Source: Marinobacterium lutimaris (lineage in GTDB: Bacteria > Pseudomonadota > Gammaproteobacteria > Pseudomonadales > Balneatricaceae). From it: a stretch of DNA of 64,000 bases. The number at the start of each line of letters is the position of its first letter. Position 1 is the stretch's first letter. The stretch spans positions 620,001 through 684,000 of the forward strand of contig NZ_FNVQ01000002.1 in the NCBI RefSeq assembly GCF_900108065.1, read 5' to 3'. Positions 40,598 to 54,580 of this stretch are shown here, in pieces. The translations under genes and the position numbers were made by a program. The notes under the pieces were generated by a model, which had not been told where the DNA came from, made no database searches, and worked only from the letters and a program-made list of their open reading frames with translations.

Positions 40598-42415
40598 TCA
40601 GCCTCCCAGGTGGTAGCGGAGTGACAGGTGTTTCTTAAAGCCCTTAACGATCTGCAGAGCGTCCCGCAGCAGGTCGCGCTCCATCTTGTTGAGCTTGTGC
40701 AGTTCGATCAGGTTAGGGGTCGGATCAAAGCCATCGTCGCTCTCTTCGACGCGGCGAATCTGCTGCCTCAGACGCAGCTGGATGAACAGAGATAACGCCT
40801 CGGATATATCCTTGCCGTTCTGCTCCTGGAGCTGCCCCGCATCCACCAGCGCCTGAATGCGCTCATACGTGTTGGTGGCGAGAATACGCTGCTCCAGCGC
40901 GAGGGTGCGGATGCCATGCACGATGGGAAAGATCCCGCCCTTCTTGATATCCAGCTCGCCCTTGTCGCGCAGGTTACCGAAGAAGGTCAGCGGTGTATCG
41001 AACTCGATAGCGGCCTTGGCAAAGTGAGAAAAGAACACATCGTTATTGCGCAGGTGGCGCAGAAACCAGTTTCTCGCCACCTTGTACAGCGCCTGATTAC
41101 CGGCCACTGGCTTCGCATCCACGGCGATCGCCAGATTCATCTGCGCTTCGCCTTCGCAGCTTTCGGCCCAGTCGTTAAGCTTCTGGGTCCAGTCGCCCAC
41201 GGAGTTCACCCACTGCGGGTTGGACACCATGATATTGCCCGGGCAAGGCGGGAAACCGAAGGAGATCAGGGTTTCGCTGAAACGATTCATTGTGGCCTGC
41301 ATATCCTTCCAGGAGAGACCATCACGAAAGATCAATGCGTTGTCCTGGTCGGTTTTCATAATCTGCTCACCGCGTCCCTCGGAGCCCATCACGATCAGGC
41401 AGACATGAGGCTGCATATCGCTGGGAATCGTCAGATCAAACAGCTTGGCGATGATGCGGCCATTCATCGCCGCCAGCAGATCCATGGTGAAGCGGATCTT
41501 CACACCGGTAGAGATCAGCGCCTTGATCAGATCGTGCAGACCCTGGGCCGCTTCTTTCAGCTCACCGATGGAGGAGGCGCGTTCGATACGCAGGCCGATC
41601 ACATGGGAATGGCTGGAGAAGTAGCTGAGCACATCGGTCAGCTCGACGATACCGACCATCTGCTGGCCGGACATGACGACCACACGCTCGATCTGCTGCT
41701 GCGTCATGGTAATCAGAGCGTTGAACAGGTAATCCTCGGGGTCGGCCGTCACCAGGCGATACGAGGCGATCTGGGAGACATCGCTATCCAGGGGCATCTC
41801 TTTCAGTACAACCGCATCCAGCAGGTCGGTGCCGGTGACCATGCCATAGCGACCGCCCTTACGCGCCAGCACACAGTCCGCCTTGTGCTCCCGCATCAGG
41901 CGGGTCGCATCGCGGATGCTGGTACCCTCTTCCACCACCAGCGGCTCACGCACGGTGGCGCTGCTGATCTTGGAAAGCATGAACTCAGCCATATCCTGGT
42001 TACGGCTGTGCTGCTCGACTAGCTCGCTTTTGGCGCTGAAATTCTGCTGGAAGTAATCGGCGAACAGGGCGTTACTCTGAATCAGCTCCACCAACACCTG
42101 GGTCGGCAGGATATGACAGATCGTCTCCTCTTCGGCGGTAAAGTCGTGAATCGCCCGACCTCTCAGGGATGACCAGCCACCGAAGTAGTCCTCGTTCTGG
42201 TAGTGCACATAGATGTGCTGTTCCTCATCGGCGCCCTCACTCTCGCGAACCCGCCCCTTGAGGATGATATAAACACCTTCCGGCGCCTCGCCGGCGGTAA
42301 TGATCTTCTCGCCCTGCTGGTAGTATCCCAGGTCAAGACTCGCTTCTACCGTCGCCTGCTCCTGGGGCGTCAGCAGACTGAACGGGATGTTATCCATCTT
42401 GAATGAATCGGACAT
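40598..42415 (-). CDS. cNMP-binding/CBS/DUF294 nucleotidyltransferase protein
   Basis: The 605-residue cytosolic protein has four modules. A cyclic-nucleotide-binding-like beta barrel is at about 10-135 (GEKIITAGEAPEGVYIILKGRV). Two CBS motifs are at about 150-275 (VEEGTSIRDATRLMREHKADCVLA; ALITMTQQQIERVVVMSGQQMVGIVEL). A DUF294 nucleotidyltransferase-like domain has MGSEGRGEQIMKTDQDNA (343-360; Asp356 and Asp358 are the probable metal ligands, as in GlnD). A DUF294 C-terminal domain follows. The substrate is unknown; a nucleotide-sensing role in acetate or sodium-symporter control is inferred from its place beside actP. Confidence 0.88.
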   Translation of the reverse strand: MSDSFKMDNIPFSLLTPQEQATVEASLDLGYYQQGEKIITAGEAPEGVYIILKGRVRESEGADEEQHIYVHYQNEDYFGGWSSLRGRAIHDFTAEEETICHILPTQVLVELIQSNALFADYFQQNFSAKSELVEQHSRNQDMAEFMLSKISSATVREPLVVEEGTSIRDATRLMREHKADCVLARKGGRYGMVTGTDLLDAVVLKEMPLDSDVSQIASYRLVTADPEDYLFNALITMTQQQIERVVVMSGQQMVGIVELTDVLSYFSSHSHVIGLRIERASSIGELKEAAQGLHDLIKALISTGVKIRFTMDLLAAMNGRIIAKLFDLTIPSDMQPHVCLIVMGSEGRGEQIMKTDQDNALIFRDGLSWKDMQATMNRFSETLISFGFPPCPGNIMVSNPQWVNSVGDWTQKLNDWAESCEGEAQMNLAIAVDAKPVAGNQALYKVARNWFLRHLRNNDVFFSHFAKAAIEFDTPLTFFGNLRDKGELDIKKGGIFPIVHGIRTLALEQRILATNTYERIQALVDAGQLQEQNGKDISEALSLFIQLRLRQQIRRVEESDDGFDPTPNLIELHKLNKMERDLLRDALQIVKGFKKHLSLRYHLGG

Positions 42416-44471: not shown

Positions 44472-44732
44472 TTATTCGTGAACGTCATACTTCTCGTCGA
44501 GCTTGTTCATGCTGAACACGTATGCCCAGATCAGCCCGAGGAAGACGAAGATTGCACCCTGCTGAGCAAACCAGAACCCCAGCGGGAAGCCGAAGAACTG
44601 AATCTGATCGAGAGCGTCAACGAAGAGGATGCCGCATCCGTATGACGCGACGAACCAGATCGCCAGGTAGGTCATGATGATTCGCAGGTTTTCCTTCCAG
44701 TACGCCTGCGCACTGCTGTTGTTGCTAGACAT
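44472..44732 (-). CDS. DUF4212 sodium/solute symporter small subunit
   Basis: The 86-residue protein has two membrane helices (about 16-38 and 51-73) and the family segments YWKENLRIIMTYLAIWF and GFPLGFWFAQQGAIFVFLGLIWAY. Such proteins are encoded directly before ActP-like symporters and are thought to be their small subunits. It heads the minus-strand symporter operon. ATG at 44732 with GGATGG nearby. Confidence 0.9.
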   Translation of the reverse strand: MSSNNSSAQAYWKENLRIIMTYLAIWFVASYGCGILFVDALDQIQFFGFPLGFWFAQQGAIFVFLGLIWAYVFSMNKLDEKYDVHE

Positions 44733-45047
44733 GGCACCATCCTATCTATTGTTTTTATTTCAGTTGGTGGAAGCAGACAGGCTGAATCTAACAAAGGAGT
44801 CGCAAGATAAAATCCCCGACTTTAGTCGGATTCATAGTGTCGACAATCCAATCCCCAGCGCCGCAACTACCGCGCCAGTAGCATCAATCACAGATTAGAT
44901 GTCGATCTGGTCAAAAAACAACCTAGACCAAGGTCTTACGATATGTAGGGCTTTGCACTCAGGCTTGTTTCGCGACAGTCCCCAGGCAGACCTTGGCGAG
45001 TTACACTGTGTGCCATATTCACGTTGAACAGATTGGAAATTGTCGAC
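44733..45047. other. Divergent control region between symporter operon and sensor kinase
   Basis: This 315-bp gap codes for nothing recognisable. It contains the TAGAC-type dyad at 44924-44937 and a small hairpin CCGACT-TT-AGTCGG at 44816-44829. A weak plus-strand promoter for the kinase (TTGGCG, 17 bp, TATTCA) lies at 44994-45022. A possible weak minus-strand -10 (TAATCT, 44897-44892) for the symporter operon places the dyad near -45. Confidence 0.6.
44924..44937. promoter_or_regulatory. Candidate operator TAGAC-CAAG-GTCTT (actP/kinase control region)
   Basis: Dyad with perfect inner arms AGACC/GGTCT. On the minus strand it shares the 13-mer AGACCWW[TG]GTCTA with the acs dyad at 54554-54567. 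Proposed as the site of the LuxR-type acetate regulator; inference. Confidence 0.5.
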
Positions 45048-48000
45048 ATGTTATCGGGCTGGACCATCATACTGATCTCCCTCGCCTACCTGTGCCTGCT
45101 GTTCGGGCTGGCCTACTACGGCGATAAAAGCGATGCGGGTAAAAAGTGGGCGAGCAATCCGGTGGTCTACTCCCTGTCGCTGGCGGTGTACTGCTCTTCA
45201 TGGACCTTTTACGGCGCGGTAGGCCGGGCTGCGTCCACCGGCTGGGAGTTCATGGCCACCTACCTGGGCCCGGTGCTGGTGTTTCTGCTGGCGTGGAGAG
45301 TGATCGAGAAGATCATCCTGATCAGCAAGCAACAGAACATCACCTCGATCTCCGACTTTATCTCCTCCCGCTACGGCAAGAGCCAGAGCCTGGCGGTGCT
45401 GGTCACGCTGATCGGCGTACTCGGCACCATTCCCTATATCGCGCTACAGCTGAAAGCGGTGGCGATCAGTTACAACGCCCTGGCGCCAGGGGCCACCGAG
45501 GCGCTCAGTAAGGGCAGCGACACCGCTCTGTTCGTGGCGCTGGCGATGGCGGTATTCGGCATACTTTTCGGCACCCGCCATATCGACGCCACCGAACATC
45601 ATGAAGGCCTGGTACTGGCGGTCGCCTTCGAGTCGATCATCAAGCTTACCGCGTTTCTGTCGGTGGGCCTGTTCGTCACCTTCGGTCTGTTCGGCAGTCT
45701 CGATACCATGCTGCACAGCCTGCAGAGCCAGCTGGTGAACAACCCTAACTTCACCGCACCGCTGGGCGACAGTTTTTTGACGGAGATAATTCTCGCCTGT
45801 GGCGCGGCGATCTGCCTGCCACGTCAGTTTCACGTCACCATCGTGGAGAACACCCGCAACCGTAACCTGCGCACGGCGCGCTGGCTGTTCCCGCTCTACC
45901 TGATACTGCTGTCGCTGTTTGTGCTGCCCATCGCCACTGGCGGCATCATGTTCTTCGGCCCGAATAGCGCCGATGCGGATATCTTTGTCTTGCTCCTGCC
46001 GCTGGTTGGCGGTCATGAATATCTGGCCACCTTCGCCTTTATCGGTGGCCTCTCCGCCGCAACCAGCATGGTCATCGTTGCCAGCATCACCCTGGCCACC
46101 ATGGTGTGTAACGATATCGTGATGCCGGTGCTGCTGAGGATCCCGCGACTGCGGCTGGCGGAAGCCGCAGACCTGGGCGCACTGCTGCTACGGGTACGCC
46201 GCATCACCATCGTCACACTGCTGCTGCTCGGCTACTTCTATTACCGCATTCTCGGCGATCAGGGTTCGCTGGCGTCATTCGGTCTGCTGGCCTTTGTCGC
46301 CGCCATTCAGTTCCTGCCCGCCATCCTCGGAGGTATCTACTGGAAACGTGGTAACCGACGCGGCGCCCTGGCTGGACTGAGCGCCGGGTTTCTGCTCTGG
46401 GTCTATACCCTGGTTCTGCCGGCCATGCAGTCCGCACATCTGATTCCCACTCAGCTGCTGCCGGGCTGGGACACTCCCTTCTGGGCGACACCAACTTCGC
46501 TGTTTGGGCTGCAATTTTTTGACCCTCTGACCCATGGCGTAATCTGGAGCCTGAGCATCAACCTGCTGCTCTACATCGCGGTGTCCATGCTCACCAACCA
46601 GCGTCTGGTGGATCGCATCCAGGCCAGCGCATTCACCAATGTGCACACCAAGCATTTTGCCGAACCCGGGCGTATGACGCGCCAGGTTTCCGTGGGCGAT
46701 CTGCAGATGCTGACTGAGCGTTTCCTCGGCATCAGCCGCACCCAGCACGCCTTTACCACTTACGCCCTGCACCGCGGTGAAGACCCGGCCCTGCCCGGCG
46801 CCAAGGCGACACCGGAGCTGATCCAGCACACCGAGCGTCTGTTGGCCGGCGCCATCGGCTCCTCCTCCGCCCGCATCGTGATGGACTCGACCCTGCGCGG
46901 CAAGGAGATGGAGATCGGCGATGTGGTGGCAATTGTCGATGAGGCCTCCCAGGCACTGAGATTCAGCCGCTCTCTGCTGCAATCAACCATCGAGAACATT
47001 AGCCTGGGCATCAGCGTGGTCGATCAGAACCTGCGCGTGGTGGCCTGGAACCAGCGCTATATCGATATGTTCAATTACCCGGAAGGGCTGGTCTGCGTGG
47101 GGCGCCCTATCGAGGAGATCTTCCGCTATAACGCCGTGCGCGGTGAATATGGCCTCAGCAACGGCCCACTCGACGACCAGGTCGCCGAACGCCTGGCGGT
47201 GATCAGCTCCGGCGAGCCGCACGCGTTTGAACGCTACCGCCCCGATGGAACGGTGCTGGAGGTGCGCGGCAACCCCATGCCCAACGGCGGTTACGTCAAC
47301 ACCTACATGGATATCACCGAGCATAAGCGCACCGAAGAGGCACTGCGTGAGAGTGAGCAGAACATCCGTGTCTACACCGATAACGTGCCGGTACTGATCG
47401 CCTACCTGGACCCGGACCGCAACTTTCTGTTCGTTAACAAGGCCTATGCCGATACCTTCGGTATCGACCGCCACACTATCGCCGGCACCCCCTCACGCGC
47501 GATTCTGCCGCCGGACGAGCATGAACATCGCCACCACTATATTCGTAAGGTGCTTAACGGCGAGCGCCAGCGCTTTGAAACCCGCATGCCCACCAGAGAT
47601 GGCTCTGAGCGCTATGCCGAGGTGACCTATATTCCCCATGTCGGCGAATACGGCGACCTGCTCGGCTACTTCACGCTCTACCAGGACATCACCGAACGCC
47701 GTAAGGCCGAGATCGCGCTGCAGGAAACCAACGAAAACCTGGAGCAGCGCGTGCGCGAACGTACCCACGCCCTGTCGGTGGTCAATAAGGAACTGCGCAA
47801 GGAGAACACCGTACGTGCCCTGATGGAGGATGAGCTGCGCCAGGCCAAGTCCGATGCAGAGGCCGCCAACCTGGGCAAGACCCGCTTCCTTGCCTCAGCC
47901 AGCCATGACCTGCTGCAGCCTTTGAACGCCGCTCGGCTGTTTACCTCAGCGCTGGCACAGCAGTCCCATGAACCGGAAACCACCCAGCTGGTCAGCAACC

Positions 48001-48977
48001 TGGACAACGCCCTGCACGCGGCCGAGGAGCTGATCACCGCAATTCTGGATATCTCCAAGCTCGATGCCGGTGCGCTGGAGCCAAACTTCAGTCACTTTGC
48101 GCTGGATTCGATGTTCCAGCACCTGTCCACCGAGTTCAACGCAGTGGCTAAAGAGAAGGGGCTGAACTTCCACCACGTCAACTGCAAACAGGTGGTCTAC
48201 TCCGACCAGGCGTTGCTGCGCCGCATTCTGCAGAACTTCCTCTCCAACGCCATCCGCTACACCGCCAAGGGCAAGGTCCTGCTGGGTGCGCGCCACCAGG
48301 AAAACAGCCTGCGGCTGGAGGTCTGGGATACCGGTGTGGGTATCCCGGAAAGCAAGCTCTCCGAGGTGTTCGAGGAGTTCCGTCGCATCGACAACCCGAA
48401 ACACAGCGAAGTCAAAGGGCTGGGCCTGGGTCTGGCCATCACCGAACGTATCGCGCGGATGCTGGACCACAGCGTTAACGTACGCTCCTGGCCCGGCCAG
48501 GGCACGGTATTCAGCGTCAGCGTGCCTCTCGGTGATCCCAGCAAGGCGCAGAAGCCGAAACCGGAGCAGCGCGGCTGGATCCGCAGCAAGGGACTCAACG
48601 GCATCAAGGTGCTGGTGATCGACAACGAGCCGAAGATTATCGAGGGGATGTCAGCCCTGCTGAAAGGCTGGTCCTGCGAGGTGATGACCGCACTCTCCGG
48701 CCCCGAAGCTTTGCAAAAGGTGCAGGCGGAAAACTGGGAACCGGACATCATGCTGGTGGATTATCACCTGGGGGAAACGGAAACCGGCATCATGGCGCTC
48801 AACGACCTGGCGCCCTGCTGGGAGCAGCCGATTCCCACGGTGGTGATCACCGCAGACAGAACCGATGAGGTCCGCGAAGAGATCCTCGCCTGCGGCGCCC
48901 AGCTGCTAACCAAGCCGGTCAAACCCGCCGCCCTGCGGGCGTTGATCAACAAGATGATCGCTACAGCGCGCGCCTGA
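45048..48977 (+). CDS. crbS: Transporter-like hybrid sensor histidine kinase (CrbS/MxtR type)
   Basis: The N-terminal half (about 1-500) is a full SSS-family transporter module with 12-13 helices. Two PAS domains follow (about 650-770 and 780-900), then a coiled coil and HisKA with phospho-acceptor His953 (FLASASHDLLQPLNA). After the ATPase domain (about 1065-1165; WDTGVGIPESKLSEVFEEF) comes a C-terminal receiver with Asp1238 (IMLVDYHLG). Residues count from ATG 45048 (MLSGWTIILISLAYL); a TTG at 45024 is an alternative start. CrbS/MxtR proteins control acetate use through CrbR/ErdR, matching actP, acs and the regulator here. Confidence 0.88.
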   Translation: MLSGWTIILISLAYLCLLFGLAYYGDKSDAGKKWASNPVVYSLSLAVYCSSWTFYGAVGRAASTGWEFMATYLGPVLVFLLAWRVIEKIILISKQQNITSISDFISSRYGKSQSLAVLVTLIGVLGTIPYIALQLKAVAISYNALAPGATEALSKGSDTALFVALAMAVFGILFGTRHIDATEHHEGLVLAVAFESIIKLTAFLSVGLFVTFGLFGSLDTMLHSLQSQLVNNPNFTAPLGDSFLTEIILACGAAICLPRQFHVTIVENTRNRNLRTARWLFPLYLILLSLFVLPIATGGIMFFGPNSADADIFVLLLPLVGGHEYLATFAFIGGLSAATSMVIVASITLATMVCNDIVMPVLLRIPRLRLAEAADLGALLLRVRRITIVTLLLLGYFYYRILGDQGSLASFGLLAFVAAIQFLPAILGGIYWKRGNRRGALAGLSAGFLLWVYTLVLPAMQSAHLIPTQLLPGWDTPFWATPTSLFGLQFFDPLTHGVIWSLSINLLLYIAVSMLTNQRLVDRIQASAFTNVHTKHFAEPGRMTRQVSVGDLQMLTERFLGISRTQHAFTTYALHRGEDPALPGAKATPELIQHTERLLAGAIGSSSARIVMDSTLRGKEMEIGDVVAIVDEASQALRFSRSLLQSTIENISLGISVVDQNLRVVAWNQRYIDMFNYPEGLVCVGRPIEEIFRYNAVRGEYGLSNGPLDDQVAERLAVISSGEPHAFERYRPDGTVLEVRGNPMPNGGYVNTYMDITEHKRTEEALRESEQNIRVYTDNVPVLIAYLDPDRNFLFVNKAYADTFGIDRHTIAGTPSRAILPPDEHEHRHHYIRKVLNGERQRFETRMPTRDGSERYAEVTYIPHVGEYGDLLGYFTLYQDITERRKAEIALQETNENLEQRVRERTHALSVVNKELRKENTVRALMEDELRQAKSDAEAANLGKTRFLASASHDLLQPLNAARLFTSALAQQSHEPETTQLVSNLDNALHAAEELITAILDISKLDAGALEPNFSHFALDSMFQHLSTEFNAVAKEKGLNFHHVNCKQVVYSDQALLRRILQNFLSNAIRYTAKGKVLLGARHQENSLRLEVWDTGVGIPESKLSEVFEEFRRIDNPKHSEVKGLGLGLAITERIARMLDHSVNVRSWPGQGTVFSVSVPLGDPSKAQKPKPEQRGWIRSKGLNGIKVLVIDNEPKIIEGMSALLKGWSCEVMTALSGPEALQKVQAENWEPDIMLVDYHLGETETGIMALNDLAPCWEQPIPTVVITADRTDEVREEILACGAQLLTKPVKPAALRALINKMIATARA

Positions 48978-49001
48978 GGCAGGCTTCACACCCTCAGGCG
49001 C
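48970..49001 (+). terminator. Possible terminator hairpin at the end of the sensor kinase gene
   Basis: GCGCCTGAGG and CCTCAGGCGC form a perfect 10-bp stem around a 12-nt loop that spans the stop codon. Only AGTGTTTAA follows, so the T-tract is weak. Confidence 0.45.
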
Positions 49002-49026
49002 AGTGTTTAAAGTTAAGGCATATCAA

Positions 49027-49093
49027 TTACCTGCCACTGCTGAATTGCGTATAGTTGGGCCGGTAAGAGGTGAGCGCCAATGGATGGCGCTCA
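49027..49093 (+). promoter_or_regulatory. Putative promoter and leader hairpin of the phosphotransferase operon
   Basis: TTACCT, 17 bp and TATAGT (49027-49055) could start transcription near 49062. A perfect 9-bp hairpin, TGAGCGCCA-ATGGA-TGGCGCTCA (49071-49093), then lies in the leader 44 bp before the ATG. The -35 is weak. The hairpin is certain as sequence; its role is unknown. Confidence 0.4.
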
Positions 49094-49136
49094 CATAAGT
49101 GCAGCAGAAAGCACGCACAAGACTAAATGGACTTAG

Positions 49137-49739
49137 ATGACCCTCTACGACTTGAAACCCGCTTTTCAGAACCTGCTACGCCCCTTGGTCGGTCGGCTAG
49201 CCGCTGCAGGTATCACTCCCAACCAGGTGACGGCTGCGGCCTGCATAGCGTCGATCGCTTATGGGCTGGCACTCTTCTTTGTCGACACACCGCTCCTGTG
49301 GCTCGGCCTGCCCGTGTTTCTGCTGTTACGGATGATGCTGAACGCCATCGACGGCATGCTGGCCCGAGAGCACAACATGACCAGCCGCGCCGGCGTCGTC
49401 CTCAATGAAACCGGCGACCTGATCTCCGATGCCGCCCTCTACCTCGCCTTTATCGGCATCGCCACGTTGAACGACTTTTCAGTGGTACTTTTCGTACTAT
49501 TCGCCTGGCTGGGTGAGGTGGTGGCCATTCTCGGCTACAGCCTGTGCCAGCAAAGAATCAATTCGGGTCCGCTGGGCAAAAGCGACCGCGCCTTTGTGAT
49601 GTCCGCAATTGCCCTGCTGTTCGCCGTTGCACCAGACCTGCTGAACAGCATCGTCAATTTCCTGTTTATCGCTCTGAATATCCTCGCAGCTCTCACCCTC
49701 ATCAACCGCAGCCAGAAGGTGATTAAATTCCATGGATAA
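49137..49739 (+). CDS. CDP-alcohol phosphotransferase family membrane protein
   Basis: Integral membrane enzyme family that joins a CDP-alcohol lipid to an acceptor alcohol. The 200-residue protein has about six helices. The signature D-x2-DG-x2-AR-x8-G-x3-D-x3-D is present with two changes. It reads N69-AI-D72-G73-ML-A76-R77 ... G86-VVL-N90-ETG-D94, so the first and third Asp are Asn. The last, catalytic Asp is kept. The reverse gene order and fused partner set it apart from pgsA or pssA. Overlaps the next gene by 8 bp. Substrates unknown. Confidence 0.85.
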   Translation: MTLYDLKPAFQNLLRPLVGRLAAAGITPNQVTAAACIASIAYGLALFFVDTPLLWLGLPVFLLLRMMLNAIDGMLAREHNMTSRAGVVLNETGDLISDAALYLAFIGIATLNDFSVVLFVLFAWLGEVVAILGYSLCQQRINSGPLGKSDRAFVMSAIALLFAVAPDLLNSIVNFLFIALNILAALTLINRSQKVIKFHG

Positions 49740-51486
49740 GGACAAACTTGCCACCCCGCTTGAGGACAGGCTCGACCAGTTTTACGCGGCAGACGGCACC
49801 AAGATCGTATTTCGCCACTGGCATCCTGAAACATTTAACCAGCGTATTCTGGTGCTGCTGCATCGCGGCCATGAGCACTCTGCCCGCATGGCGGAGATGG
49901 CCGATTTTTTCGTCCAGCAGGGCTACAGCGTTTACGCCTGGGATGCGCGCGGTAACGGCCTGTCCGAGGGTGAACGGGATCACGCCGACAGTTATGCCCA
50001 GCTGGCGCACGACCTGGATCTGTTTATCCAGCGCATCGAGGAAGAGAGCGGTATTAACCGCGATCAATTCGTAGTGATCGCCAGCAGTGTGGGCGCGGTA
50101 ATAGCCACAGCCTGGCTGCACGACTACGCACCGAAGATCCGTGGCATAATCCTCGCCACTCCAGCCTTCAAGATTCGCCTGTACATACCGTTTTCAGAAC
50201 CGTTGCTGGCAGTGGCGCAGAAATTCAAACTCATGCCCCGGGTCAGCAGCTACGTAAAATCGCGCATGCTGACCCACGATCGCCAGCAACAGCAGATCTA
50301 TAACGAAGACCCGCTGATCTCCACGTCGATCTCTACGCCCCTGCTGCTGGATACACTGAAAACCGGCCGTCGGCTGGTGGATGACGCCGGCGCTATCACC
50401 ACCCCGCTGTTACTGCTCTCTGCCGGCAAGGACTGGGTGGTGCACCGCTCACCTCAGCGCAGGTTCTACGAGCGCCTGAGCTCAGAACACAAGGAGTGGC
50501 ACTACAACCCGAACGCCCACCATGCCCTGTTTATCGAAGATGACCGCAACGCCACCTACCAGCGCTGCCTGACATTTATAGAATCGGTATTTGAGCGCGA
50601 ACCCCGGGTGCCCGACCTGTGCAACGCCGATCAACACGGTTACAGCCGCGATCGCTACGATGCCATGGCGCTACCCTGCTACAACCCGTCTTATCCGCTA
50701 ATGCGCTGGACGATCAAACAGTTCGGCGGCATTAGCCAGGGGATTAAAATCGGCCGCGATCTGGGGTTCGATTCCGGCGCTTCGCTGGAGTACGTCTACA
50801 ACAATACCGCCACAGGCAAGAGCCCCATCGGCCGCTGGATCGACCGGATCTATCTGGATTCACCAGGCTGGCAGGGCATACGCCAACGCAAGGTGCTGCT
50901 GAAACAGCAGATCAACCGGTGTATCGACTCACTCAAGGCAAGGCAGGAAAACGACGACTCAGCACTAATCCGCATCGTTGATATCGCCGCCGGTAACGGC
51001 CAATACCTGTTCGAACTCGCCGCTCAGCATGCCGATATGGAACTGGAACTCCGCGACCTGAAGAGCAATAACATCGATATCATGTCGCGCGTTATCAGCG
51101 AACGAAACCTCGACGAACGCGCCCAGGCGGTAAAGGCCGACGCCTTTGCCGCTCAAACCTATTCCAGCGAAGAGCGCTACCAGATCGCCGTGTCCTCCGG
51201 CGTATTTGAGCTGTTCAGCACTAATGCCTTTATCACCGCCGCCATCAAAGGTATCCACAGCCAGCTCGGTGATAACGGGTTTTATGTTTATACCAATCAG
51301 CCCTGGCACTCGCAGCAGAAGCTGATCGCCAAGACGCTGAACGACCACCAGGGCAAGCTCTGGAGCATGCGCTGCCGTACTCAGGCGGAAATGGATGCCC
51401 TGGTTGAAGCGGAAGGGTTTAAAAAGATAGGCATGCTGATCGACAACACCGGCATGTTTACCGTATCGATCGCTCGGAAAGGCTAG
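49732..51486 (+). CDS. Fused alpha/beta hydrolase - SAM methyltransferase
   Basis: A 584-residue, apparently cytosolic two-enzyme fusion. The N-terminal half resembles monoacylglycerol lipase-type hydrolases. Its nucleophile elbow is ASSVG (Ser119, with Ala in place of the first Gly), with probable acid Asp234 (AGKDWVV) and His264 (NAHHALFIED). A linker (about 280-390) leads to a class I methyltransferase with VDIAAGNGQYL at 416-426 and a terminal GMFTVSIARKG strand. Translationally coupled to the phosphotransferase, it suggests a lipid head-group or acyl modification pathway. The product is unknown. Confidence 0.82.
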   Translation: MDKDKLATPLEDRLDQFYAADGTKIVFRHWHPETFNQRILVLLHRGHEHSARMAEMADFFVQQGYSVYAWDARGNGLSEGERDHADSYAQLAHDLDLFIQRIEEESGINRDQFVVIASSVGAVIATAWLHDYAPKIRGIILATPAFKIRLYIPFSEPLLAVAQKFKLMPRVSSYVKSRMLTHDRQQQQIYNEDPLISTSISTPLLLDTLKTGRRLVDDAGAITTPLLLLSAGKDWVVHRSPQRRFYERLSSEHKEWHYNPNAHHALFIEDDRNATYQRCLTFIESVFEREPRVPDLCNADQHGYSRDRYDAMALPCYNPSYPLMRWTIKQFGGISQGIKIGRDLGFDSGASLEYVYNNTATGKSPIGRWIDRIYLDSPGWQGIRQRKVLLKQQINRCIDSLKARQENDDSALIRIVDIAAGNGQYLFELAAQHADMELELRDLKSNNIDIMSRVISERNLDERAQAVKADAFAAQTYSSEERYQIAVSSGVFELFSTNAFITAAIKGIHSQLGDNGFYVYTNQPWHSQQKLIAKTLNDHQGKLWSMRCRTQAEMDALVEAEGFKKIGMLIDNTGMFTVSIARKG

Positions 51487-51502
51487 CTCAGAACGAGGGT
51501 TT

Positions 51503-51630
51503 GTAGACAGCACGCCCCGTGCCGATTGAGTTGGCGCGGGCCAATCAGAACCACCCAGGCTAATCGCGACGGGGCGTCGCTCCTACGAATAGTGTGATAA
51601 CACCATCGCAGGAGGCGTGCCCTCGCGCCG
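51503..51630. repeat. Cluster of three REP-like palindromes between convergent genes
   Basis: Plus unit 51503-51525 (contains GCACG-CCC-CGTGC), minus unit 51564-51586 (GTAGGAGCGACGCCCCGTCG on the minus strand) and plus unit about 51607-51630 (GGAGGCGTGCCCTCGCGCC). They lie in the 156-bp gap between two convergent genes, a usual place for REP elements, and may serve as a bidirectional 3'-end structure. Confidence 0.7.
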
Positions 51631-51642
51631 CTAAGACTTGGC

Positions 51643-52308
51643 TTAAACCTGGGTCTTCGGCGGCTCGACACCAAGGCGCTGCGCCGCGATCACGGCCTGG
51701 GTGCGGCTATGGACACCCAGTTTGCGCAGGATAGCGGTAACGTGTGCCTTGATCGTGGCTTCGGATACGCTGAGCTCGTAGGCGATCTGCTTGTTCAACA
51801 GGCCTTCGGTCAGCATGGTCAGTACGCGGAACTGCTGCGGTGTCAGGGATGCCAGCGCTGCAGCAAACTTCTGATCTTCTTCGGTGACCAGGTCATCCAG
51901 GGTGTCGGAGATCTCCTGCGGCAGCCACTCATCCCCCTGGAGCACAGCGGTAATCGCTTCAGAGATCACTTCCAGCGGTGCTGATTTGGGAATAAAGCCG
52001 GAGGCGCCGTAATCGATCGCCCGCTTCATCACGTTGGGCTCTTCGCTGCCGGAAACAACCACGACGGGAATTCCAGGATGCTGACCTCGCATAAAGACCA
52101 GGCCAGAAAAACCCTGGGCGCCGGGCATGTGGATATCGAGCAAAACCAGGTCGGCATCGCCATGCGCCTCAGCGGTTTCTTGCACGGCTGCCAGTGTATC
52201 CGCTTCCAGAATGGCGACTCCCGGCACTGCCTGCATCACCGCCTGCTTCAGTGCTGCACGAAACAGCGGGTAGTCGTCAGCAATGATGATCTTCTGGGCC
52301 AGCTGCAT
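51643..52308 (-). CDS. crbR: LuxR-type response regulator of acetate metabolism (CrbR/ErdR type)
   Basis: The receiver domain (1-120) has the acidic pair DD at 11-12 and phospho-acceptor Asp58 (ADLVLLDIHMPG). The LuxR HTH is at about 150-212 (LTPQQFRVLTMLTEGLLNKQIAYELSVSEATIKAHVTAIL). Length 221. It lies next to acs and near a CrbS-like kinase, so acs/actP activation is the likely role. A TATGAT -10 at 52382-52377 suggests its own promoter, with a TAGAC dyad centred near -45 inside the acs terminator. Confidence 0.87.
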   Translation of the reverse strand: MQLAQKIIIADDYPLFRAALKQAVMQAVPGVAILEADTLAAVQETAEAHGDADLVLLDIHMPGAQGFSGLVFMRGQHPGIPVVVVSGSEEPNVMKRAIDYGASGFIPKSAPLEVISEAITAVLQGDEWLPQEISDTLDDLVTEEDQKFAAALASLTPQQFRVLTMLTEGLLNKQIAYELSVSEATIKAHVTAILRKLGVHSRTQAVIAAQRLGVEPPKTQV

Positions 52309-52376
52309 ACCTCGTTCCCCTTTGCCTGCGATCCTGCTTCGGGATCTTGCCTGATTCCGGAATTTCCAAGCTGAGG

Positions 52377-52382
52377 ATCATA
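52377..52382 (-). promoter_or_regulatory. Possible -10 element of the response regulator gene
   Basis: TATGAT (5 of 6) on the minus strand, about 70 bp upstream of the start codon and just after the acs terminator. No good -35; the dyad at 52408-52422 occupies the activator position near -45. Confidence 0.35.
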
Positions 52383-52400
52383 TCAGGATTGAAAAAAAAA

Positions 52401-52429
52401 CGCCCTGTAGACAGTGTGTCTACAGGGCG
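52401..52429. terminator. Strong terminator after acs, containing a TAGAC dyad
   Basis: CGCCCTGTAGACA, loop GTG and TGTCTACAGGGCG form a perfect 13-bp stem flanked by nine A on one side and five T on the other, so it can work in both directions. It lies between the acs stop and the regulator gene. The stem includes TAGAC-AGTGT-GTCTA (52408-52422), close to the proposed operator. Confidence 0.92.
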
Positions 52430-52465
52430 TTTTTATCTGCAAAACTGTGAGCGACTAGACGCCTG

Positions 52466-54421
<1,956 letters not shown>

Positions 54422-54522
54422 GGTTTTGCCCCTAGCCTTGGTATTTTGTTTTTATACAGATCTGGCTCTGGTCTTATGTTGTTATAGGTGACCAGAGATT
54501 GAGTGTTCATAATCTGCATAGA

Positions 54523-54580
54523 GTTATACTTGAGTGGTGCTAAGCCCCTGAATTAGACATTGGTCTATCGATTCTTAGAC
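54523..54580 (-). promoter_or_regulatory. acs promoter with candidate regulator sites
   Basis: A TATAAC -10 (54528-54523) would start transcription near 54516, leaving a leader of about 95 nt. In place of a -35 there is the dyad TAGAC-ATTG-GTCTA (54554-54567), centred near -44. A second half-site TTAGAC (54575-54580) begins 22 bp from the first, on the same helix face. The positions suit an activator; its identity is inferred. Confidence 0.5.

What the first reader, a model, noticed from the sequence alone, without database searches (positions are those of the whole stretch)
44924..54580. Shared dyad TAGAC-N4/5-GTCTA near -45 of acetate genes
Seen: dyads at 44924-44937 (actP/kinase gap), 52408-52422 (before the regulator gene) and 54554-54567 (before acs). 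With the best -10 boxes (TATAAC for acs, TATGAT for the regulator, a weak TAATCT for the symporter) each dyad is centred about 44-46 bp upstream of the start. This is an activator position and none has a good -35. Inference: this is the binding site of the CrbR/ErdR-like regulator, which would also control itself.
Basis: partly seen in the sequence, partly recalled or inferred. Interest (0 to 1): 0.7.

Follow-up and report, generated by a model that had tools for sequence, protein, structure and literature searches.

The report
Known acetate-switch sites, one mistaken terminator
Two of the three reported DNA palindromes match the published motif of the acetate regulator CrbR, the third is part of a transcription stop signal, and a better-placed site at the transporter promoter had been missed.

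Summary
The dyads exist, but they are not one thing. The acs dyad (54554-54567) matches the published CrbR/ErdR "ACTU" motif: in 80 non-redundant relatives TAGAC-N4-GTCTA leads an unbiased dyad search (50 of 80; shuffle maxima 6-8), centred 31-33 bp before a TATAA-type -10, the geometry published for Pseudomonas fluorescens. The dyad at 52408-52422 lies in the 18-bp stem of the acs intrinsic terminator: its spacer is N5, none of 7 genus relatives keeps TAGAC there, and 0 of 76 acs-erdR gaps hold an ACTU-like site, so regulator self-control is unsupported. The dyad at 44924-44937 is conserved (27 of 39 crbS/yjcH gaps) but lies about 200 bp from the symporter gene. Genome-wide the bare dyad is no commoner than an N5 control (24 against 29). 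Extra lead: an ACTU-like dyad near the likely start site of malate dehydrogenase in 14 of 21 family members, suggesting repression. Mostly ordinary: a known motif in a lineage not yet described for it in the papers I saw.

The parts
54554..54567 (-). ACTU dyad of acs (20-mer on - strand CGATAGACCAATGTCTAATT), centre 139 bp before the acs start codon
   Evidence: best profile hit of the genome, E 0.03
54523..54528 (-). acs -10 box TATAAC, 32 bp from the dyad centre (dyad at about -44.5)
   Evidence: offset 31-33 holds a TATAAT-like hexamer in 32 of 72 scored relatives
   Evidence: core at 75-100 bp in 28 of 28 loci with yjcH at least 67% identical; scores only -0.5 on the acs-trained matrix
44785..44790 (-). 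actP-operon -10 TAGATT, with TG one base before it (extended -10)
   Evidence: TGnTA at offset 30-32 in 24 of 26 non-redundant loci
44924..44937 (.). distal ACTU dyad between crbS and yjcH, 108 bp upstream of the proximal one
   Evidence: 27 of 39 divergent crbS/yjcH gaps have a site of at least 9 at 187-223 bp from yjcH
52466..54421 (-). acs, acetate--CoA ligase
   Evidence: TIGR02188, 1021 bits
51643..52308 (-). crbR/erdR-like response regulator
   Evidence: receiver + GerE; best NCBIfam hit ErdR NF041830 at 276 bits, below its 390 cut-off
45048..48977 (+). crbS-like hybrid kinase with N-terminal symporter domain
   Evidence: SSF, PAS, HisKA, HATPase_c, receiver
44478..44732 (-). yjcH-like small symporter subunit (DUF485 type)
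   Evidence: TIGR03647
42665..44443 (-). actP-like sodium/solute symporter
   Evidence: TIGR03648, 848 bits

Best explanation
Phosphorylated CrbR/ErdR-type regulator, switched on by the symporter-kinase CrbS, binds ACTU dyads (GAC or TAC, 4 bases, GTC) centred at about -44.5 upstream of acs and of yjcH-actP and recruits polymerase to promoters with a usable -10 and no -35 (class II activation). In the window the acs site is 54554-54567 and the actP promoter site is 44816-44829. The 52408-52422 dyad is part of the acs terminator and no operator. Shown here: sequence, conservation, spacing, co-occurrence with erdR. Inferred: binding, activation, role of the distal site.
For: Unbiased dyad search, acs 50 of 80; matrix sites in 72 of 80; fixed -10 offset at acs (32 of 72) and actP (24 of 26); proximal actP core in 28 of 28 close relatives; co-occurrence with ErdR, 72 of 80 against 1 of 15; published mutational proof for the same motif in P. 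fluorescens at -52 to -36 and ErdR gel shifts in P. putida; positive control: 15 of 25 Halomonas-group gaps between the pflu5625-like gene and yjcH hold a site of at least 9; terminator.
Against: No binding or expression data for this organism. Bare dyad not enriched genome-wide (24 against 29). The proximal actP site scores -0.5 on the acs-trained matrix, so it is called by its GAC-N4-GTC core, position and conservation. 8 of 80 acs upstreams have no site of at least 11, and the matrix was trained on these upstreams. In P. putida no ErdR shift of acsA-I DNA was seen. One Acs paralogue (L347) and one orthologue (L330), both in a genome with only distant ErdR-like proteins, have sites.
Confidence: 0.83

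Rival explanations
1. One reading: three equal operators, including self-control of the regulator through 52408-52422.
For: The N5 dyad is perfect and lies at a plausible distance from a TATGAT box.
Against: It is the stem of a hairpin with T-tracts (-29.5 kcal/mol). None of 7 genus relatives keeps TAGAC; in the closest one (L128) one stem base changed so that a G-U pair remains in RNA while the DNA dyad is broken. 0 of 76 gaps have a site of at least 9. ACTU spacing is N4.
Confidence: 0.03
2. The distal dyad 44924-44937 is mainly a crbS (kinase) operator, giving feedback on the sensor.
For: It lies 117 bp before crbS; the 2017 paper lists a predicted, non-significant ACTU match at P. fluorescens crbS (q 0.6).
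Against: Distance to yjcH is steady (187-223 bp), to crbS variable (56-334 bp). crbS genes not divergent from the yjcH orthologue: 1 of 44 has a site, and there a second yjcH copy starts 201 bp away; 2 of 29 further crbS loci, at other distances. The crbS TTACACT box is 38-39 bp away in some loci and about 71 in others (read by eye).
Confidence: 0.2
3. The dyads are bound by a paralogous LuxR-type regulator, or by several, and not by CrbR.
For: The genome has many LuxR-type paralogues, the nearest at 44% identity.
Against: acs sites follow ErdR orthologues, which lie beside acs; the published link for this motif is to CrbR.
Confidence: 0.07
4. Chance dyads without function.
For: Bare dyad no commoner than the N5 control; window counts reached by 12 of 100 shuffles.
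Against: Conservation, fixed -10 offset and co-occurrence with erdR at acs and actP.
Confidence: 0.03

Closest known systems
ACTU motif of CrbS/CrbR (MxtR/ErdR), Pseudomonas fluorescens SBW25 (PMC5715377)
   Same: Imperfect inverted repeat with GAC/TAC-N4-GTC core, centre about -44, before acs and actP; the actP site shares ACTAAnGTCG with the window's proximal site
   Different: Here acs, crbR, crbS and actP lie within 12 kb; actP has two sites about 108 bp apart; an ACTU-like dyad at mdh
Intrinsic (rho-independent) terminator
   Same: 18-bp stem, 3-nt loop and T-tract directly after acs
   Different: Happens to contain TAGAC/GTCTA in its stem; T-tracts on both strands, so possibly bidirectional
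Class II activation by LuxR/NarL-type response regulators
   Same: Operator at about -44.5 next to a promoter without a -35 (recalled principle)
   Different: Not tested biochemically here

Membership tests
ACTU motif (acs dyad 54554-54567) | Inverted repeat with N4 core spacing, GAC/TAC...GTC | tested here: met
   published sequences
ACTU motif (acs dyad 54554-54567) | Position just upstream of the promoter, about -52 to -36 | tested here: met
   -10 at 32 bp from the centre, conserved; start site itself not mapped
ACTU motif (acs dyad 54554-54567) | Occurs with CrbS/CrbR | tested here: met
   72 of 80 against 1 of 15; relatedness of the genomes not corrected for
ACTU motif (acs dyad 54554-54567) | Needed for CrbR-dependent induction | not testable with these tools
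   needs reporters
ACTU motif (actP proximal 44816-44829) | Core, spacing and position at actP | tested here: met
   28 of 28 close relatives; -10 offset 30-32 in 24 of 26
ACTU motif (actP proximal 44816-44829) | Score on the acs-trained matrix | tested here: not met
   -0.5; outer letters differ (CC...GG)
ACTU motif (distal 44924-44937) | Core and N4 spacing | tested here: met
   matrix score 17.4
ACTU motif (distal 44924-44937) | Position at about -44 of a promoter | tested here: not met
   no conserved -10 at 31-33 bp on the yjcH side; variable on the crbS side
ACTU motif (52408-52422) | N4 core spacing and conservation before erdR | tested here: not met
   N5, score -22.6; 0 of 76 gaps
Intrinsic terminator (52396-52434) | Stable GC-rich hairpin followed by a T-run, 3' of a gene | tested here: met
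   termination itself not tested
CrbR/ErdR response regulator | Receiver plus LuxR-type HTH and ErdR family score | tested here: inconclusive
   Domains present; NF041830 is the best hit but at 276 of the 390 bits needed

The most novel reading that the evidence does not exclude
In this marine family one regulator works in two directions through one motif: it activates acs and actP from -44.5 and represses malate dehydrogenase from an ACTU-like dyad lying at the mdh start site, while actP uses a pair of sites about ten helical turns apart.
Probability: 0.25. Interest if true: 0.5.

Novelty: new member of a known kind. Interest (0 to 1): 0.32.

Why it matters
It carries the published ACTU motif into the Nitrincola/Neptunomonas/Amphritea group and Halomonas relatives with a fixed promoter geometry that makes targets predictable, and it removes a false claim of regulator self-control. 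The mdh dyad, if confirmed, would link acetate sensing to the tricarboxylic acid cycle, for which the 2017 paper had only non-significant predictions at isocitrate dehydrogenase and fumarase.

Tried and rejected
Genome-wide counting as evidence: rejected, N4 and N5 dyads are equally common. icd (monomeric isocitrate dehydrogenase) as a target: 7 of 8 genus members have a TAGACTTA(G/T)GGCTA site with the GTC half broken; 4 of 30 upstreams score at least 9; weak. scpC/pflu0110-like gene (PF13336): own copy best 5.2; of 9 upstreams examined (of 18 loci) one has a clear site (L321, 16.3) and L315 has 9.0 inside the called frame. Isocitrate lyase by PF00463: 3 of 57 genomes passed the strict cut-off, so not usable. 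A sequence-profile search of the own genome listed only acs (E 0.03) and one site inside a reading frame (E 0.97); the mdh and distal sites were not listed. crbS self-control: 1 of 44 and 2 of 29. The CATGG dyad that leads the acs-erdR gaps looks like a Halomonas-group promoter block (by eye).

Rows dropped before counts: near-duplicate upstreams (89 to 80 acs, 71 to 61 yjcH, 89 to 78 gaps); two gaps under 20 bp (78 to 76); acs sites under 11 in the -10 profile (80 to 72); yjcH upstreams without the proximal core in the spacing analysis (61 to 26); three low-identity Acs paralogues (L345-L347, 41-44%; L347 has a site of 17.2) left out of the 1 of 15. The 28 of 28 and 27 of 39 counts include near-duplicates. 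The crbS start codons were called automatically and some may be wrong.

Full report
WHAT IS THERE. The window holds, on the - strand, yjcH-actP (symporter subunits), a crbR/erdR-like regulator and acs, and on the + strand crbS, a symporter-fused hybrid kinase. The three dyads are at the stated places. By number alone they are unremarkable: within one mismatch the window has 2 N4 dyads against 0.63 expected and 1 N5 dyad against 0.67; the 5.57-Mb genome has 24 N4 and 29 N5, of which 12 and 11 lie outside reading frames of 120 aa or more, the N5 figure including the window's own terminator dyad.

ACS. I gathered 80 erdR loci of named genomes (a capped list of the best) and 40 stretches of unnamed relatives, located acs, erdR, crbS and yjcH by tblastn and thinned near-duplicates. 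Asking for any 5-base half-site with any spacer of 0-12, TAGAC-N4 leads in the acs upstreams, 50 of 80, while the best dyad in ten Markov shuffles reached 6-8. A matrix trained on these same upstreams finds a site of at least 11 in 72 of 80; the window's CGATAGACCAATGTCTAATT scores 23.6 and is the best profile hit of the genome (E 0.03). TATAAT-like hexamers pile up 31-33 bp from the centre (32 of 72; no other offset has more than 2). In the 16 genomes whose best ErdR match is 4e-58 or weaker, 1 of 15 acs orthologues has a site of at least 9; Fisher p 2e-10 against 72 of 80, relatedness ignored. The exception, L330, and a paralogue with a site (L347, 17.2, left out) are both in G040, which has ErdR-like proteins of 40-43% identity.

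ACTP. The alignment shows a stronger constraint nearer the gene: GACTAAAGTC or close variants 80-95 bp from the start codon, in the window CCGACTTTAGTCGG at 44816-44829, with TGnTA 30-32 bp from its centre in 24 of 26 non-redundant loci. The core is at that place in 28 of 28 loci whose yjcH is at least 67% identical. It is the geometry of acs and of P. fluorescens, whose actP site (TAATACTAAGGTCGTCT) shares ACTAAnGTCG with it; its outer letters differ, and it scores -0.5 on the acs matrix. In L136 and L146, where other genes precede yjcH, the proximal site remains and no distal site was found; L148 also lacks a distal one. Distal and proximal centres are 105-109 bp apart in 15 of 23 loci that have both, although the sequence between is poorly conserved; this hints at paired binding. 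A kinase operator is less likely: 1 of 44 crbS genes not divergent from the yjcH orthologue has a site of at least 8, and there (L046) a second yjcH copy starts 201 bp away; 2 of 29 further crbS loci have one, at other distances.

REGULATOR GENE. 52408-52422 lies in AAAAACGCCCTGTAGACA-CAC-TGTCTACAGGGCGTTTTT followed by Ts (fold -29.5 kcal/mol), the acs terminator. Of seven genus relatives none has TAGAC in the acs-erdR gap. Five keep a 15-16 bp ACGCCC...GGGCGT hairpin with other inner letters; the closest, L128, keeps the stem with one base changed so that RNA can still pair (G-U) while the DNA dyad is broken (by eye); in L131 the scan found no hairpin. By the same scan 34 of 78 gaps of all relatives have a terminator-like hairpin. 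No gap of 76 long enough to score has an ACTU-like site of at least 9. In the Halomonas group the gap holds a conserved promoter-like block without an ACTU site. Self-control of the regulator is not supported.

WHAT IS KNOWN. Sepulveda and Lupas 2017 (PMC5715377; abstract and sections 11, 13, 15, 16 and 19 read) named the ACTU motif, found it in 91 of 112 promoters of 31 species, placed it at -52 to -36 of acs and showed by mutation and in E. coli that CrbR needs it. Passages of PMC8402216 report ErdR gel shifts on scpC, PP_0354 and actP-I but not acsA-I DNA. A word search in PMC5436829 found none of binding site, motif, palindrome or footprint. Literature searches; of other papers I saw listings only. 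A word search for malate in PMC5715377 gave none. I saw no report of paired actP sites or of an mdh site, but did not search the literature for these by name.

A LEAD BEYOND THE WINDOW. The only other perfect N4 dyad of the genome (C18:1026100) lies 59 bp before malate dehydrogenase. Among 21 family members with a close mdh, 14 have a site of at least 9 (shuffles: mean 0.18, largest 2); of 9 more distant ones 0 have (12 more distant matches were not fetched). The unbiased dyad search gives 9 of 21 against shuffle maxima of 3-5, and 5 of 13 (AGACT-N2: 6) after thinning by eye against maxima of 2-3. In the genus the surroundings change while the dyad stays. In most genus members it lies just downstream of a possible TTGCAT-N17/18-TT(G/C)AAT promoter, and in several other genera its left half reads TATAC(T), itself -10-like (both read by eye); both suggest a block on transcription. 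Against it: five family members have no site of at least 5 (L226, L228, L233, L235, L237), four of them from genomes with ErdR, and binding by another LuxR-type regulator is not excluded. Positive control for the matrix: in 15 of 25 gaps where a pflu5625-like gene is divergent from yjcH, a site of at least 9 is present.

VERDICT. A known motif in a lineage new to it, correctly sensed at acs, half right at actP, wrong at the regulator gene. Organism: the nearest named relatives are Nitrincola, Pontibacterium, Neptuniibacter, Amphritea and Neptunomonas; the genus itself is named by no call.

Noticed in passing
L002/L217 (G000:C18:1026100-1026113): Perfect ACTU-like dyad 59 bp before malate dehydrogenase, conserved in 14 of 21 family members and placed where it would block transcription.
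   Followed up: partly
40598-42415: cNMP/CBS/DUF294 protein like PFLU5625, a published CrbR target, lies downstream of actP here; in the Halomonas group it is divergent from yjcH and 15 of 25 such gaps carry a site.
   Followed up: partly
44732-44765: A-rich AATAAAAACAATAG leader just before yjcH, conserved in the family and like the AAnAAnAA Crc motifs that the 2017 paper reports after the start sites.
   Followed up: no
L055, L056, L072, L078-L081 (acs upstream): In part of the Halomonas group the best site lies about 200 bp before acs (CAGACCTTGGTCTAT) and not at 93-136 bp.
   Followed up: no
L055-L086 (acs-erdR gaps): Conserved CTTGGG...CATGGGGTAACATG block 73-140 bp before erdR, probably its promoter.
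   Followed up: partly
G000:C18:316812-318740 and G000:C14:19869-21215: Two further crbS-like symporter-kinase homologues in the same genome.
   Followed up: no
L046:14926-16962, L136:3031-5125, L126, L049: A second, divergent yjcH-actP pair (yjcH 44-49% identical) sits beside crbS in several relatives.
   Followed up: partly
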